A stretch of DNA of 64,000 nucleotides from Microbacteriaceae bacterium PS02070 (GTDB lineage: Bacteria; Actinomycetota; Actinomycetes; Actinomycetales; Microbacteriaceae). The DNA lies in the NCBI GenBank assembly GCA_029959865.1, contig JASCPE010000002.1, forward strand, positions 186,001 through 250,000, given 5' to 3'. Under the pieces are notes generated by a model. It ran no database searches. It was not told the origin of the DNA and worked only from the letters and a program-made list of their open reading frames with translations. Made by a program: the position numbers and the translations under genes. This document shows, piece after piece, positions 23,249 through 28,051 of the stretch (position 1 is the stretch's first letter; every line of letters starts with the position of its first letter).

Positions 23249-24283
23249 ATGAAGCGCACCGGAATCGTCACGTTCGTCGGAGCGGTCACGCTCGCGCTCA
23301 CCCTCGCGGGATGCTCGAACGACCCGGGATCGACGGGCTCGGACGATGACGACTACTACTCGCCGATCGGCGAGTACACCGATGTGCTCTACGGTGGCGA
23401 CTTCGATGAAGAGGAATGGAACGCGCAGTACGTCGAGCGTGAGCGCGTTGTCGAGCAGATGGTCGCCGAATGCATGACGGATGAGGGCTTCGAGTACATT
23501 CCGCAGGAAGTCGACGAATCGATGTTCTCGTCGGGTGATGGTGACTCCGAGGAGAACGTCTACGAGCCGGACGACCGCGAGTGGGTGGAGCGTTACGGGT
23601 ACGGCATCGTGAACTGGCCCGGGCAGGAGGAGGCGGAAGAGATTCCCGTCGAGGAGGAGGAGATCCCGGTCGACCCGAACGCCGAGTACCTCGAGAGCCT
23701 CTCCGAGAACGAGCGGTTGGCCTACGAGGAAGCGCTCTGGGGTCCGCAGCCGACGGAGGAGGAGATGAACGACCCCGACTACGAGTGGCCCATGGACGAG
23801 GGCTGCTACAACGTCGCGCAGAACGAGGTCGGGTACCCCGGCGAAGACACTTACGCGGGCCTCGAGGAGGAGTTCGCTCCGCTCATGGAGTCCATGGAAG
23901 AGTTCTGGACCACGTCTTCGGAAGACCCCCGCTTCGCAGAGCTGGACGCGGCCTGGGCTGGGTGCATGAGCGAAGCCGGTCACTCGGGTTACACGACTCA
24001 GATGGATCCTCAGGACGAGATCAGCAACGAAGTGAACGCTTTCTGGGAGTCGCTCTCCGAGGAGGAGATGACGGAGGGCGTGGATCCGTACGACTCCCCG
24101 GAGATGGCGGAGATCGGGAAGCGTGAGGTCGAGACCGCGCTGGCTGACCTGGACTGCCGTGAAGAGGTCAAGTACACCGAGCGCACCGACGAGATCCGGA
24201 TCGAACTGGAAGAAGAGTTCGTCGCCGCGAACAAGGCGGAGCTCGAGGCATTCAAGGCAGCGGCAGAACAGGCCGCCGGCTAG
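23249..24283 (+). CDS. Acidic lipoprotein, first gene of an export operon
   Basis: 344 residues. A lipoprotein signal peptide (KRT...LALTLAGCS) has its lipobox Cys near residue 22. The mature part is extremely acidic, with many E/D runs, and has four spaced Cys in recurring settings: AECMTDEGFEY, EGCYNVAQ, AGCMSEAGHSGY and DLDCREEV. The first and third look like copies of one C-x5-G motif. The C-terminus is a Glu/Ala helix. No enzyme motif is seen. The stop overlaps the adaptor start by 1 nt, which ties it to the transporter as a possible substrate-binding or sensing partner. Confidence 0.85.
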   Translation: MKRTGIVTFVGAVTLALTLAGCSNDPGSTGSDDDDYYSPIGEYTDVLYGGDFDEEEWNAQYVERERVVEQMVAECMTDEGFEYIPQEVDESMFSSGDGDSEENVYEPDDREWVERYGYGIVNWPGQEEAEEIPVEEEEIPVDPNAEYLESLSENERLAYEEALWGPQPTEEEMNDPDYEWPMDEGCYNVAQNEVGYPGEDTYAGLEEEFAPLMESMEEFWTTSSEDPRFAELDAAWAGCMSEAGHSGYTTQMDPQDEISNEVNAFWESLSEEEMTEGVDPYDSPEMAEIGKREVETALADLDCREEVKYTERTDEIRIELEEEFVAANKAELEAFKAAAEQAAG

Positions 24284-25974
24284 TGGCGAAGGGGGAGCGG
24301 AGCGAGTTCGACGACCTTCTCGGCCCGGATCGTTCCGAGAAGCCTGCGCACGAGAGTTCGGATCCGCCGGCCGTCGAGGATGAATCTGACACCGCCGTCC
24401 TCGACACGGACGCTGACAGCCGCACGGGCGCTGAGCCTGAGACGGATACGAAGACGGAGGACAGTGGCACGGGGGAGTCCACCTCGCGCGTGCAGGGATG
24501 GCGTCGTGTGTTCCGCGGCAACCGTGTCCTCTGGCTGACCGCCCTCATCGGCGTGGTCGCCCTTGTCGGAGGGCTCCTCCTCGGAAGATTCGTGCTGTCA
24601 CCCGCGGACGCGGCCTCGCTTGCGGAGGCTCCGGAGCCCGGGCTGATCACCGTCGAAGTCGAGCGTGGCGTTCTCAGCAACGACGTGACGATCCGCGGCG
24701 AGATCGCCTACGCGGACTCGGTCGAGGTCACTTTGGAGGGCGGCGGCGAAGGCGCCTCGATCGTCACCGGCGCGGTGCCCGAAGCGGGGAGCAATCTGGA
24801 GGAGTTGAGCGTCGCCCTGGAAGTCACGGGACGCCCGATCATCGTGTTGCCGGGCGAGTTGCCGGCCTACCGCACCCTCACCTTCGGAATGACCGGCCCC
24901 GACGTCGTGCAGTTCAAGCAGGCCATGCGAGAGGTGGGTCTGGACGCGGGTGATCCCGAGTCAGATGTGTTCGATGCCACCGCCGCGAACGCCGTCACGG
25001 CGCTCTACGCGGAAGTGGGCTATCCGGCGCCGGCATCCGAGGAGGGAGCCGCCGAGGCTGTGCAGCTTGCGCGCGACAGCGTGCGCGCCGCCGAGCAGGA
25101 GGTGGAGACGGCGCGCGCCGCGTTGGACAACGTTTCGTCCGGGGTGTCGGCAGTGGATGTCCTGCGCGCCGACAATGCGGTCAACGCTGCGTCTCGCGCT
25201 CTGGAGGCGGCGCGTGCGGAGACGCCTGACGACACTCTTCAGATCGCCGCCCTGGAAGATGAACTCGCGGTCGCCAAGCTGGAACGTGAGGAACTGAACC
25301 GAGCACCGGACAGTTCCGGGGAGAAGGCGGCGCTCGAGGCGGCGCAGGGGTCTTTGACCTCGGCCCAAGAAGACCTCACGCGTGCGCAGCAGGACGCGCT
25401 GCCGAGCCTTCCGTCGGGCGAGGTGCTCTACCTCGCCGAGCTTCCCCGCCGCATCGATGCCGTCAACGTCGCGCGCGGCGACGCACTCGAGGGCCCCGCG
25501 CTGGTCGTCTCCGGCGCGACCTTGAGCATGTCCGGATCGGCGGCACCCGCTGATGCCGCACTGCTGGAGGTGGGGGCGGAGGCGAGCTTCGCGCTCCCCG
25601 AGGGCGGGGACGGCGTTGCCGTCGTCACGGCGCTCGAAGCGGGAGCAAGTACGGAGGACCGCTGGACCGTGACGTTGGAGCCGAAAGACCTGACCCCCGA
25701 GCAGATCACGAATCTGCAGGGGACCAATGTTCGCGTCCAGATTCCCGTCGGGGCGACGGAGGGGGAGGTGCTGTACGTGCCGGTGGCGGCGCTGACCGCC
25801 GGCCCGGGCGGAGAGGAACGGGTCGAGGTCGTCGATGGGGATCCGCGCGACGGGGACGAGGCCGAGACACGACTCGTGGTTGTCGAGACGGGGCTCGCGG
25901 CACAAGGATCGGTGGAGGTTCGTCCGATTGAGGATCCGCTCGACGAGGGCGACCTCGTGGTGGTGGGTCGGTGA
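24283..25974 (+). CDS. HlyD/MacA-like membrane adaptor with peptidoglycan-binding domain
   Basis: 563 residues: an acidic cytosolic N-terminus (1-75), one membrane span (VLWLTALIGVVALVGGLLLG, about 78-97), a barrel-like start (ITVEVERGVLSNDVTIRGEI), a PG_binding_1-like segment (LTFGMTGPDVVQFKQAMREV, about 203-222), an Ala/Glu coiled coil (about 255-370) and a C-terminal beta region. In Gram-positives such proteins couple MacB-type ABC pumps to the wall. GTG start overlaps the lipoprotein stop; the end overlaps the ATPase gene by 4 nt. Confidence 0.85.
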   Translation: MAKGERSEFDDLLGPDRSEKPAHESSDPPAVEDESDTAVLDTDADSRTGAEPETDTKTEDSGTGESTSRVQGWRRVFRGNRVLWLTALIGVVALVGGLLLGRFVLSPADAASLAEAPEPGLITVEVERGVLSNDVTIRGEIAYADSVEVTLEGGGEGASIVTGAVPEAGSNLEELSVALEVTGRPIIVLPGELPAYRTLTFGMTGPDVVQFKQAMREVGLDAGDPESDVFDATAANAVTALYAEVGYPAPASEEGAAEAVQLARDSVRAAEQEVETARAALDNVSSGVSAVDVLRADNAVNAASRALEAARAETPDDTLQIAALEDELAVAKLEREELNRAPDSSGEKAALEAAQGSLTSAQEDLTRAQQDALPSLPSGEVLYLAELPRRIDAVNVARGDALEGPALVVSGATLSMSGSAAPADAALLEVGAEASFALPEGGDGVAVVTALEAGASTEDRWTVTLEPKDLTPEQITNLQGTNVRVQIPVGATEGEVLYVPVAALTAGPGGEERVEVVDGDPRDGDEAETRLVVVETGLAAQGSVEVRPIEDPLDEGDLVVVGR

Positions 25975-26651
25975 GTGTCCCCCTCCTGGAGCTGCGGGAC
26001 GTCACTCGATCGTTTCCCGGTCCTCCCGAAGTCCAGGCACTCAAGGGAGTGAACCTCGTGGTCGAGACCGGGGACTACGTCTCCATCGTCGGACCGAGCG
26101 GGTCGGGAAAGTCGACGATGCTCAACATCCTCGGGCTCCTGGACCGTCCGAGCGTCGGCGAGTATCGCATCGATGGAGTGCGCACGGGTGACCTCGACGA
26201 GGACGACCGAGCGGCTGTACGCGCTCGCAGAATCGGTTTCGTGTTCCAATCCTTCCACTTGATGGCGCGACGCACGGTCCTGGACAACGTGCTCATGCCG
26301 ATGCTCTACAGCGGTGTACCTCGCGCTGAACGGGAGGACCGAGCGCGAGAGACGCTGCGCCGGGTGGGCCTCTCGCATCGCGTCGACTTCCTCCCCACGC
26401 GCCTGTCCGGCGGCGAGCGGCAACGCGTCGCCGTCGCGCGCGCCGTTGTCAGCGCCCCCAGCGTTCTGCTGGCCGATGAGCCGACGGGAAACCTCGATGG
26501 GGCCACCTCGCAGGAGGTGCTGGCGCTGTTCGATGAGCTCCGAGGGGACGGCCTCACCCTCATCGTCATCACGCACGACAGCGTGGTGGCAGAACGCGCC
26601 GATCGTCGCGTGAGGATCGCGGACGGACGACTCACGGAGGTCCGCGCGTGA
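25971..26651 (+). CDS. ABC transporter ATP-binding protein (MacB/LolD type)
   Basis: 226 residues, complete. Walker A GPSGSGKST (about 44-52), Q-loop VFQSFHLM, signature LSGGERQR (about 146-153), Walker B VLLADEPT and H-loop ITHDS are all present. It is the motor for the downstream permease. GTG start at 25971 overlaps the adaptor by 4 nt and the permease GTG overlaps its own end by 4 nt, so all four genes are coupled. Confidence 0.94.
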   Translation: MSVPLLELRDVTRSFPGPPEVQALKGVNLVVETGDYVSIVGPSGSGKSTMLNILGLLDRPSVGEYRIDGVRTGDLDEDDRAAVRARRIGFVFQSFHLMARRTVLDNVLMPMLYSGVPRAEREDRARETLRRVGLSHRVDFLPTRLSGGERQRVAVARAVVSAPSVLLADEPTGNLDGATSQEVLALFDELRGDGLTLIVITHDSVVAERADRRVRIADGRLTEVRA

Positions 26652-28051
26652 CATCGCACCCTGAAGATCGGCCCTCAGACACGCAGGGGGATGCGAATGC
26701 GGAGCTCCTCGCCCCTGCCGACGGTGCCCGGCGGCCGCGTCGATCACGTCGCCGCGGCTCCCGTCGTGCCGACCGAAAGGCGGCGCGTACAGCGACACGA
26801 TCGGAGGGTTCCGCGGCACTGGTGACGCCCGCGGCACGCGCGGACAGGTTCTCCGCACAGGATCTGCTGGTCGAGGCGACCGCCGACATCGGGTCGCGTC
26901 CCGGACGGCTCGCCATGACCCTCGTGGGCACCGTGCTGGGAATCGGGGCACTCGTCGCGACCATCGGGTTCGCCCAGACCGCGGGACATCAGATCGCGCG
27001 TCAGTTCGACGCGGCGCGCTCGACGCAGGTCGTCGCCGTCGCCGCCGAGTCGGAGACGGCGAGCGGGACGGTGACCACGGGTCGACTGCCATGGGACGCG
27101 CCGGAACGCCTCAACCGGTTGGTCGGCGTGGACGCGGCCGCGATCATCACCGACGTTCCGATCGGGGAGGATCGAGTAGCCGCCGTCTCCGTCAACGATC
27201 CGTCTGCGCCCGCGGTTGCTCCACCACCGATCGTGGCATCGTCGGCGCACCTGCTGGACGTCACCGGAGCAAGCCTCGTCACCGGCCGTATGTTCGACGA
27301 GGGTCACGACGCGCGGGGAGACCGGGTGGTGGTCCTCGGAGCCGGCGCCGCGGAGCGCTTGGGGATCAACCGCGTCGACACGCAACCGTCGATCTTCATC
27401 GGTGATGCACCGTATGCAGTTCTCGGCATATTCGATGGGCTCACGGCGCGGGGAGACCTCCGCAACGCGGTCGTCATGCCGACCCAGACCGCGCGTGCGG
27501 ATCGCGGGATCACGGCACCGGGGGAAGTCCAGGCGCGAATCGAGGTGGGTACCGGCCCTCAAGTGGGCGAGCAGGCGGCGATTGCCCTCGCGCCCGATGA
27601 GCCAGACTCCATCGACGTCACGGCGCCGTCCGCTCGTTCGAACCTCAGCCAGAATGTGCAGTCCGACGTCAACGTCATCTTCCTGATCCTCGGCGGAATC
27701 GTGCTGCTGGCCGGAGCTTTGGGGATCGCGAACGTGACGATGCTCAACGTCATGGAGCGGATTCCTGAGATCGGTCTGCGCCGTGCGCTCGGCGCCACGC
27801 GCCGACAGATCGCAGCGCAGTTCGTCGTCGAATCCCTCATCGTGGGGCTGCTCGGTGGTCTGCTCGGCGCGGCGATCGCAGTGCTCGCCGTGGTCGGTTT
27901 CGCCCTCAGCCAGCAGTGGACCCCCATCGTCAACGGCTGGGTTGCGCTCGCGGGGGTCGCGCTCGGCGCGCTGGTCGGCCTCATCGCGGGTGGCTTCCCC
28001 GCCCGACGGGCGTCGCGCATCGAGCCGGTCGCGGCTCTCAGCGGCCGCTGA
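26648..28051 (+). CDS. ABC transporter permease, MacB/FtsX type
   Basis: 467 residues. An Arg-rich cytosolic N-terminus of about 85 residues precedes a first span (MTLVGTVLGIGALVATIGF), then a MacB-type extracytoplasmic domain (about 125-335), then three C-terminal spans of the FtsX domain containing NVMERIPEIGLRRALGATRRQI (coupling helix). These pumps act by mechanotransmission rather than classical channel transport and commonly export peptides, antibiotics or lipoproteins. Last gene of the operon. Confidence 0.92.
   Translation: MTSHPEDRPSDTQGDANAELLAPADGARRPRRSRRRGSRRADRKAARTATRSEGSAALVTPAARADRFSAQDLLVEATADIGSRPGRLAMTLVGTVLGIGALVATIGFAQTAGHQIARQFDAARSTQVVAVAAESETASGTVTTGRLPWDAPERLNRLVGVDAAAIITDVPIGEDRVAAVSVNDPSAPAVAPPPIVASSAHLLDVTGASLVTGRMFDEGHDARGDRVVVLGAGAAERLGINRVDTQPSIFIGDAPYAVLGIFDGLTARGDLRNAVVMPTQTARADRGITAPGEVQARIEVGTGPQVGEQAAIALAPDEPDSIDVTAPSARSNLSQNVQSDVNVIFLILGGIVLLAGALGIANVTMLNVMERIPEIGLRRALGATRRQIAAQFVVESLIVGLLGGLLGAAIAVLAVVGFALSQQWTPIVNGWVALAGVALGALVGLIAGGFPARRASRIEPVAALSGR

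What the first reader, a model, noticed from the sequence alone, without database searches (positions are those of the whole stretch)
23249..28051. Four-gene envelope operon: acidic Cys-bearing lipoprotein, PG-binding adaptor, ABC motor, MacB/FtsX permease
All junctions overlap by 1 or 4 nt. The adaptor combines a membrane span, a peptidoglycan-binding segment and a long coiled coil. The lipoprotein is extremely acidic with four ordered Cys and a repeated C-x5-G setting. A lipoprotein built into the operon suggests a trans-wall system with its own surface receptor, cargo or sensor. MacB-type pumps in Gram-positives mostly lack described lipoprotein partners, so this is the best candidate here for an undescribed system.
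Basis: partly seen in the sequence, partly recalled or inferred. Interest (0 to 1): 0.65.

Follow-up and report, generated by a model that had tools for sequence, protein, structure and literature searches.

The report
Four-part wall pump with cysteine lipoprotein
The four genes encode a MacB-type export pump in an actinobacterium whose wall-binding adaptor is accompanied by a dedicated four-cysteine lipoprotein, a partnership that recurs widely in the phylum and that I could not find described.

Summary
The operon is real: LP (23249-24283), adaptor (24283-25974), ATPase (25971-26651), MacB/FtsX permease (26648-28051), overlapping by 1, 4 and 4 nt. In 149 genus genomes, LP and close adaptor occur in the same 39. 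All 79 named loci have LP then adaptor. In a phylum sample chosen by adaptor similarity, 33 of 37 uncut loci have a four-Cys lipoprotein directly upstream, 2 more divergently, 2 none. FtsX-permease loci without such an adaptor: 0 of 31. The 172 pattern-found lipoproteins share the order C-x4-G/N, C, C-x4-G/N, C, with no fifth Cys once the lipid Cys is set. No curated family covers them. Most likely this is a four-subunit MacAB-like exporter; the lipoprotein captures toxic amphiphilic, perhaps cationic, molecules at the membrane and passes them to the pump. Linkage and architecture are shown; substrate and mechanism are inferred. Against exclusivity: 13 of 40 family/class LP homologues stand alone. 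New variant of a known kind.

The parts
23249..24283 (+). Lipoprotein LP (344 aa, lipobox LAGC), acidic, all-helical model, four invariant Cys in two C-M-x3-G...C units; no curated family
23312..23314 (+). lipid-attachment Cys (C22), invariant
   Evidence: lipobox read from the sequence
23471..23473 (+). C75 of first C-M-x3-G motif (CMTDEGF)
23804..23806 (+). C186, proposed partner of C75 (pairing inferred)
   Evidence: pairing is inference
23963..23965 (+). C239 of second C-M-x3-G motif (CMSEAGH)
24155..24157 (+). C303, proposed partner of C239 (pairing inferred)
   Evidence: pairing is inference
24283..25974 (+). MacA/HlyD-fold adaptor (563 aa) with peptidoglycan-binding-like insert and coiled coil
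24523..24591 (+). adaptor membrane helix (residues 81-103)
   Evidence: (model helix), sequence
24868..25032 (+). adaptor PG_binding_1-like segment (residues about 196-250)
   Evidence: PF01471 in 27 of 53 alignment members, not in the window protein itself; helices; alignment
25048..25395 (+). adaptor coiled coil, four helices (residues 256-371), not seen in the shorter paralogous adaptors aligned
25971..26651 (+). ABC ATPase, MacB/LolD/FtsE group
26648..28051 (+). permease with MacB_PCD and FtsX domains

Best explanation
The operon encodes a four-subunit MacAB-like exporter for a wall-facing (monoderm) envelope. ATPase and permease form the MacB-type motor. The adaptor, with a MacA/AcrA-like fold, extends from the membrane and carries a peptidoglycan-binding-like segment that should fix its outer part in the wall. 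The lipoprotein is a dedicated fourth subunit anchored in the outer leaflet beside the adaptor. It is built from two units, each with a C-M/L-x3-G motif and a second Cys, probably two disulfide-braced helical modules. Most likely it catches harmful amphiphilic, perhaps cationic, peptides or lipids at the membrane surface and hands them to the permease/adaptor channel, which pushes them into or through the wall. Shown: gene order, linkage, domain make-up, the conserved four-Cys plan, the predicted adaptor fold. Inferred: disulfides, docking to the adaptor, capture role, substrate. I give about 0.8 to 'dedicated subunit or partner of the pump' and about 0.4 to the capture role.
For: Same 39 of 149 genus genomes; order kept in 20 of 20; 79 of 79 named loci, from Microbacterium, Klenkia, Blastococcus, Geodermatophilus, Arthrobacter, Cryobacterium, Rathayibacter, Cellulosimicrobium, Actinomyces and others (in one, L242, the adaptor is cut by the contig end). 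All 20 paralogous adaptor loci fetched in the genus also have a four-Cys lipoprotein beside them (15 by automatic pattern, 5 by eye, one of these divergent). Phylum sample: 35 of 37 uncut loci (33 upstream, 2 divergent). 0 of 31 FtsX-permease loci without an adaptor have the pattern. LP evolves fastest of the four (mean identity 0.45; adaptor 0.57, permease 0.63, ATPase 0.72) and its distances follow the adaptor's (r 0.91; partial 0.62 given permease; permease given adaptor 0.15; 65 loci). Seven of 79 named loci carry extra LP copies for one adaptor, as receptors with several specificities would. Net charge -83. Precedents in passages seen: NisI lipoprotein with NisFEG (PMC4828448, 78) and MlbQ lipoprotein with MlbJYZ pump (PMC6283892, 79).
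Against: No substrate, phenotype or complex is known. No convincing fold match for LP in the PDB and no sequence match to solved chains, so no receptor fold is recognised. LP homologues also stand alone: 13 of 40 family/class loci. Two phylum loci (L308, L316) have a PG_binding_1 adaptor and no LP found. Extreme acidity is a subfamily trait (D+E 24% in 99 long-type LPs, 18% in 33 of the phylum sample), so cationic-peptide binding cannot be the general rule. A part that is nearly always present could as well be structural. Homology of the long LP to the short phylum-wide lipoproteins is only weakly supported by profile comparison (36% over 34 columns); they share the Cys plan and the position.
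Confidence: 0.45

Rival explanations
1. The lipoprotein is a structural or assembly subunit: it braces the peptidoglycan-anchored adaptor ring at the membrane, much as YbjP binds TolC in MacAB-TolC, and does not touch substrate.
For: Near-obligate presence with peptidoglycan-type adaptors in very different subfamilies; absent at one conventional HlyD-type adaptor without a PG_binding_1 match (L340) and at all 31 adaptor-less FtsX loci examined; LP distances follow the adaptor rather than the permease; YbjP precedent (PMC13082787, passages seen).
Against: Extra diverged LP copies for one adaptor in 7 of 79 named loci; fast divergence; LPs without adaptor in 13 of 40 loci.
Confidence: 0.3
2. The lipoprotein is the cargo: a Lol-like system in which the MacB/LolCDE-type motor lifts its own dedicated lipoprotein from the membrane and the wall-anchored adaptor passes it outward.
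For: The ATPase scores second best against LolD and the permease matches LolCE weakly; the review lists LolCDE as sharing the MacB architecture and releasing lipoproteins (PMC5985334, passages); one LP per transporter is the commonest layout.
Against: Scores lie below the LolD and LolCE curated cut-offs; nothing shows release of LP; solitary LPs exist.
Confidence: 0.12
3. The lipoprotein is an envelope-stress sensor that regulates the pump or a two-component system.
For: A histidine-kinase-like motif lies within some loci of other subfamilies (9 of 20 genus paralogues, 10 of 27 family/class, 19 of 40 phylum loci, by a loose regex).
Against: 0 of 20 loci of this subfamily in the genus have such motifs, and 1 of 79 named loci has a response-regulator-like one (81); LP is co-encoded with pump subunits, not with regulators.
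Confidence: 0.08

Closest known systems
MacAB-like pumps of Gram-positives (Spr0693-0694-0695; YknWXYZ)
   Same: MacB-type ATPase and permease with a MacA-like adaptor and no outer membrane; Spr0693 is among the fold matches of the adaptor; YknX reported to bind peptidoglycan (review passage)
   Different: Here the adaptor family carries a PG_binding_1-type segment and a four-Cys lipoprotein is encoded with the pump; no lipoprotein partner is named in the passages seen
Lantibiotic immunity: LanI lipoprotein plus LanFEG; Microbispora MlbQ plus MlbJYZ
   Same: A lipoprotein and an ABC pump act together; MlbJYZ with MlbQ is the nearest functional parallel in an actinobacterium that I found
   Different: No biosynthetic genes recognised among the window genes next to the operon (phosphatase, reductase, DapB and the like); neither LP profile matches any PDB sequence although MlbQ's structure is said to be solved by NMR, so relatedness to MlbQ is unsupported, not excluded
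YbjP on MacAB-TolC of E. coli
   Same: A lipoprotein bound to a MacAB pump
   Different: YbjP binds TolC at the outer membrane; here there is no TolC in the operon and LP should sit in the cytoplasmic membrane (inference)
LolCDE
   Same: Same motor architecture; ATPase similar to LolD
   Different: Below curated cut-offs; adaptor present; no chaperone gene in the operon

Membership tests
MacB-type ABC transporter | ABC ATPase plus permease with MacB_PCD and FtsX domains | tested here: met
   PF00005 105.5 bits, PF12704 63.8, PF02687 68.7, all above cut-off
E. coli MacB equivalog | NCBIfam NF007826 above cut-off 966 | tested here: not met
   241.9 (ATPase) and 59.7 (permease) on separate chains
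MacA/HlyD adaptor | membrane fusion protein fold | tested here: met
   Foldseek E 1.2e-16 to an AcrA model, 6.6e-14 to MacA of MacAB-TolC, 2e-12 to a MacA crystal, 2.9e-8 to Spr0693; no Pfam sequence match
Peptidoglycan-binding adaptor | PG_binding_1 domain | tested here: inconclusive
   none in the window protein up to E 1; 27 of 53 alignment members match at E up to 0.1; aligned segment conserved
Peptidoglycan-binding adaptor | physical binding to peptidoglycan | not testable with these tools
   needs a pull-down
Tripartite TolC-dependent efflux pump | outer-membrane exit duct | not tested
   none in the operon; genome not searched for it
LolCDE | LolD / LolCE equivalog scores | tested here: not met
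   LolD 224.2 below 307.75; LolCE 38.9 below 362.45
FtsEX | FtsE / FtsX model scores | tested here: not met
   FtsE 211.4 below 264.85; FtsX_actino 30.9 below 250
Four-Cys two-unit lipoprotein partner (proposed here) | lipobox, then C-x4-G/N, C, C-x4-G/N, C, beside a peptidoglycan-type adaptor | tested here: met
Four-Cys two-unit lipoprotein partner (proposed here) | sequence homology of the long (window) type with the other types | tested here: inconclusive
   long vs intermediate type: 99.3% over 213 columns; long vs short type: 36% over 34 columns; reversed controls 0.3% and 0.1%
LanI / MlbQ immunity lipoproteins | sequence or fold match | tested here: inconclusive
   no match among solved chains by sequence; a fold search cannot exclude it

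The most novel reading that the evidence does not exclude
Across Actinomycetota the MacB-type pump with a wall-binding adaptor is a four-part machine, and the fourth part is a lipoprotein that the motor itself lifts from the membrane and shuttles, alone or loaded with a toxic ligand, through the adaptor into the wall: a monoderm counterpart of Lol release and efflux in one device.
Probability: 0.12. Interest if true: 0.85.

Novelty: new variant of a known kind. Interest (0 to 1): 0.56.

Why it matters
MacB-type pumps are a main class of drug and peptide exporters, and the review I saw in passages asks what adaptors do in Gram-positives, which lack an outer membrane (PMC5985334). A lipoprotein that accompanies nearly every peptidoglycan-type adaptor sampled in one large phylum, yet matches no curated family, points to a missing subunit. 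It gives an immediate genetic test: delete the lipoprotein and ask whether the pump still works.

Tried and rejected
Known lipoprotein families: no Pfam or NCBIfam match for the window LP up to E 1. Among the 60 rows of A2, no Pfam or NCBIfam family matches more than 4 rows at E up to 0.1; the best single values (Birna_VP3 9.4e-5 in 2 rows, EexN 1.2e-4 in 3, SCO4651 lipoprotein 5.4e-4 in 3) look like composition or signal-peptide matches. For the short type I scanned 12 of the 29 lipoproteins collected: NCBIfam one hit at 0.025, Pfam best 0.0045, with CX9C/COX17/CHCH hits that I read as Cys spacing. No PADLOC match for LP or adaptor; mad3 at E 5e-31 for the ATPase I read as general ABC similarity. 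LP in plasmids: one weak Streptomyces record among 72,556. LP fold: Foldseek best E 3.1; second look 31 chains with Z 2 or more, best 5.8, which for helical models may be only a common arrangement. Internal duplication of the window LP: unit 1 vs unit 2 gave only 25% over 22 columns, so duplication is shown for the short type alone (98.7%). A first long-vs-short comparison (90%) included L280, which looks like a long-type member; after removing L280, L315, L317 and L318 it fell to 36%, and I use the latter. A home-made PG-binding regex was useless and dropped. ATPase distances correlate poorly with the rest (r about 0.3) and may be noisy, so I lean on LP, adaptor and permease only. The automatic pattern missed 20 of 192 adaptor frames. 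By eye or HMM these include real LPs (L145, L148, L155, L156, L158, L172, L176, L241, L281, L299), second adaptors of one operon (L298, L300, L302), second pieces of a broken adaptor frame (L228, L318), contig edges (L303, L310, L312) and misses (L308, L316). One search read minus-strand loci in the wrong orientation and is not used. Papers: 10 searches found no description of this lipoprotein-adaptor pairing; most subscription papers are not held. Seven papers were opened, all in passages only. The Pozzi NAI-107 paper was not read, only cited in those. Names recalled, not from a call: that Klenkia, Blastococcus, Geodermatophilus and Modestobacter are one family.

Full report
Observation. LP has a lipobox and a mature part of 323 residues, net charge -83. 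The repeated Cys setting is C-x4-G, not C-x5-G. The ATPase and permease are MacB-type. The adaptor has no sequence-family match of its own, but its predicted structure (pLDDT 85.0) matches AcrA, MacA and Spr0693, and 27 of 53 members of its alignment carry PG_binding_1. A coiled coil of four helices follows that segment and is not seen in the shorter paralogous adaptors aligned. The window lies in G000, a 2.7 Mb assembly; many of the named records with the closest LPs are Microbacterium.

Linkage within the genus. The adaptor search scored only the best nine candidates per genome. In 20 of 20 loci the order is LP-adaptor-ATPase-permease. One genome has a second close adaptor on a 5.4 kb contig whose upstream side is cut off. 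Only 7 of 20 loci share window neighbours (PNPase, aldo/keto reductase, phosphatase, DapB and others); in one of the 7 (L073) the operon lies a few genes further along; the other 13 show none of the eight genes tested in the stretch fetched. So the unit stays together while its address changes.

Linkage beyond. Profile searches at E up to 0.001 found LP in 33 of 199 family genomes and 41 of 296 class genomes, weak matches included. Of 40 such loci fetched, 27 have the adaptor and 13 do not. A scan of named genomes gave 79 loci; 78 have LP and adaptor, and in L242 the adaptor begins after LP and is cut by the contig end. These are the best 80 of 148 relatives, so they lean to close ones.

The wider pattern. 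Twenty more distant adaptors, chosen by adaptor similarity alone, were fetched. All 20 have beside them a lipoprotein with two C-plus-G/N motifs and further Cys: 15 by automatic pattern, 5 by eye (L145, L148, L156; L155, L158; L158 divergent). L158 is the window genome's own second adaptor locus. A broad adaptor profile (A4; of its 18 rows six came from loci found through LP) was run on 246 phylum genomes. I fetched 40 regions covering most of its best-scoring rows, down to E about 1e-15; lower rows are largely short stretches and were not examined. Three of the 40 are cut at the upstream side (L303, L310, L312). Of the other 37, 33 have the lipoprotein directly upstream, 2 have it divergently (L281, L299), and 2 lack it (L308, L316) although their adaptors carry PG_binding_1. 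The window genome's third adaptor is among the 33 (L317), so all three adaptors found in that genome have one. Over all 192 adaptor frames examined, 172 are pattern-positive; among 8634 other frames 43 are, 26 of which by my count are extra, solitary or divergent LPs. All 172 have four Cys after the lipid Cys: 167 directly, 5 once a mis-picked lipobox is allowed for. The pattern demands at least four, so the finding is that there are no more; and many of the 172 are close relatives, not independent cases.

Specificity control. In six genomes with such adaptors I took the FtsX-permease loci not already fetched: 34 loci. In the 31 without an adaptor hit the lipoprotein pattern is never present. 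In the three with one it is present in two (L334, and L339 whose FtsX match is below the family cut-off); the third (L340) has a conventional HlyD-type adaptor with no PG_binding_1 match. That last contrast is one locus, and absence of a Pfam match is weak evidence, since two LP-bearing adaptors (L317, L334) also lack one.

What the lipoproteins are. No Pfam or NCBIfam family matches the window LP, more than 4 of 60 long-type rows, or, save single weak hits, the 12 short-type LPs scanned. The long type is all-helical with good confidence (pLDDT 87.4, pTM 0.77) and has no convincing PDB match. It is related to an intermediate type at other adaptor loci of the family (99.3% over 213 columns). 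Its homology to the short phylum-wide type is unproven (36% over 34 columns), although Cys plan, motif and gene position agree. In the short type the two halves are clearly duplicates (98.7%); in the window LP this is not shown (25% over 22 columns). I therefore propose two helical units each braced by one disulfide; the pairing is inference.

Mechanism. Linkage to the adaptor, not to FtsX-type transporters in general, says that LP works with the wall-anchored adaptor. Distances agree: LP follows the adaptor (r 0.91, partial 0.62 given the permease) more than the permease given the adaptor (0.15) in 65 loci; genes of one operon correlate anyway, so this is mild support. Fast divergence and extra copies for one pump (7 of 79 loci) favour a ligand-facing role; near-obligate presence favours a structural role. 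Precedents for lipoprotein plus ABC pump are NisI-NisFEG and MlbQ-MlbJYZ (PMC4828448, PMC6283892, PMC4973701, passages; 78-80), and for a lipoprotein on a MacAB pump YbjP (PMC13082787, passages). I put capture first (0.45 for the statement as a whole), structural second (0.3), cargo third (0.12), sensor last (0.08).

Novelty. The motor and adaptor are of known kinds; the lipoprotein subunit and its phylum-wide pairing are not in the papers I could search (10 searches, listed under Tried and rejected). Hence a new variant of a known kind. Interest 0.56: a specialist should be surprised that a recurrent subunit went unnamed, but function is untested.

Noticed in passing
L168, L246 (three LPs); L205, L207, L221, L263, L267, L274, L072, L073 (two): Extra, diverged lipoprotein copies sit beside a single adaptor; L205 holds two whole operons in tandem, the first with two LPs.
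   Followed up: partly
L139, L140, L141, L145, L148, L149, L177, L178: In these paralogous units ATPase and permease lie in one open frame, as in E. coli MacB, yet the lipoprotein and adaptor stay separate.
   Followed up: no
L298, L300, L302: Operons with a second peptidoglycan-type adaptor after the permease, without a second lipoprotein.
   Followed up: no
L164, L166, L173, L174, L188, L190-L196, L198: Solitary LP homologues with no adaptor nearby and varied neighbours.
   Followed up: partly
G014, G088, G127, G122, G075, G143, G125 loci: The operon's upstream side lies about 10 kb from a contig end in seven draft assemblies of the genus, as if an assembly-breaking repeat (rRNA?) lay at a fixed distance.
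   Followed up: no
L229 (WNZI01000005.1): Record titled Vibrio cholerae strain 35D encodes this actinobacterial operon; probably a mislabelled or contaminated assembly.
   Followed up: no
L228: The adaptor is split into two overlapping frames, probably a frameshift.
   Followed up: no
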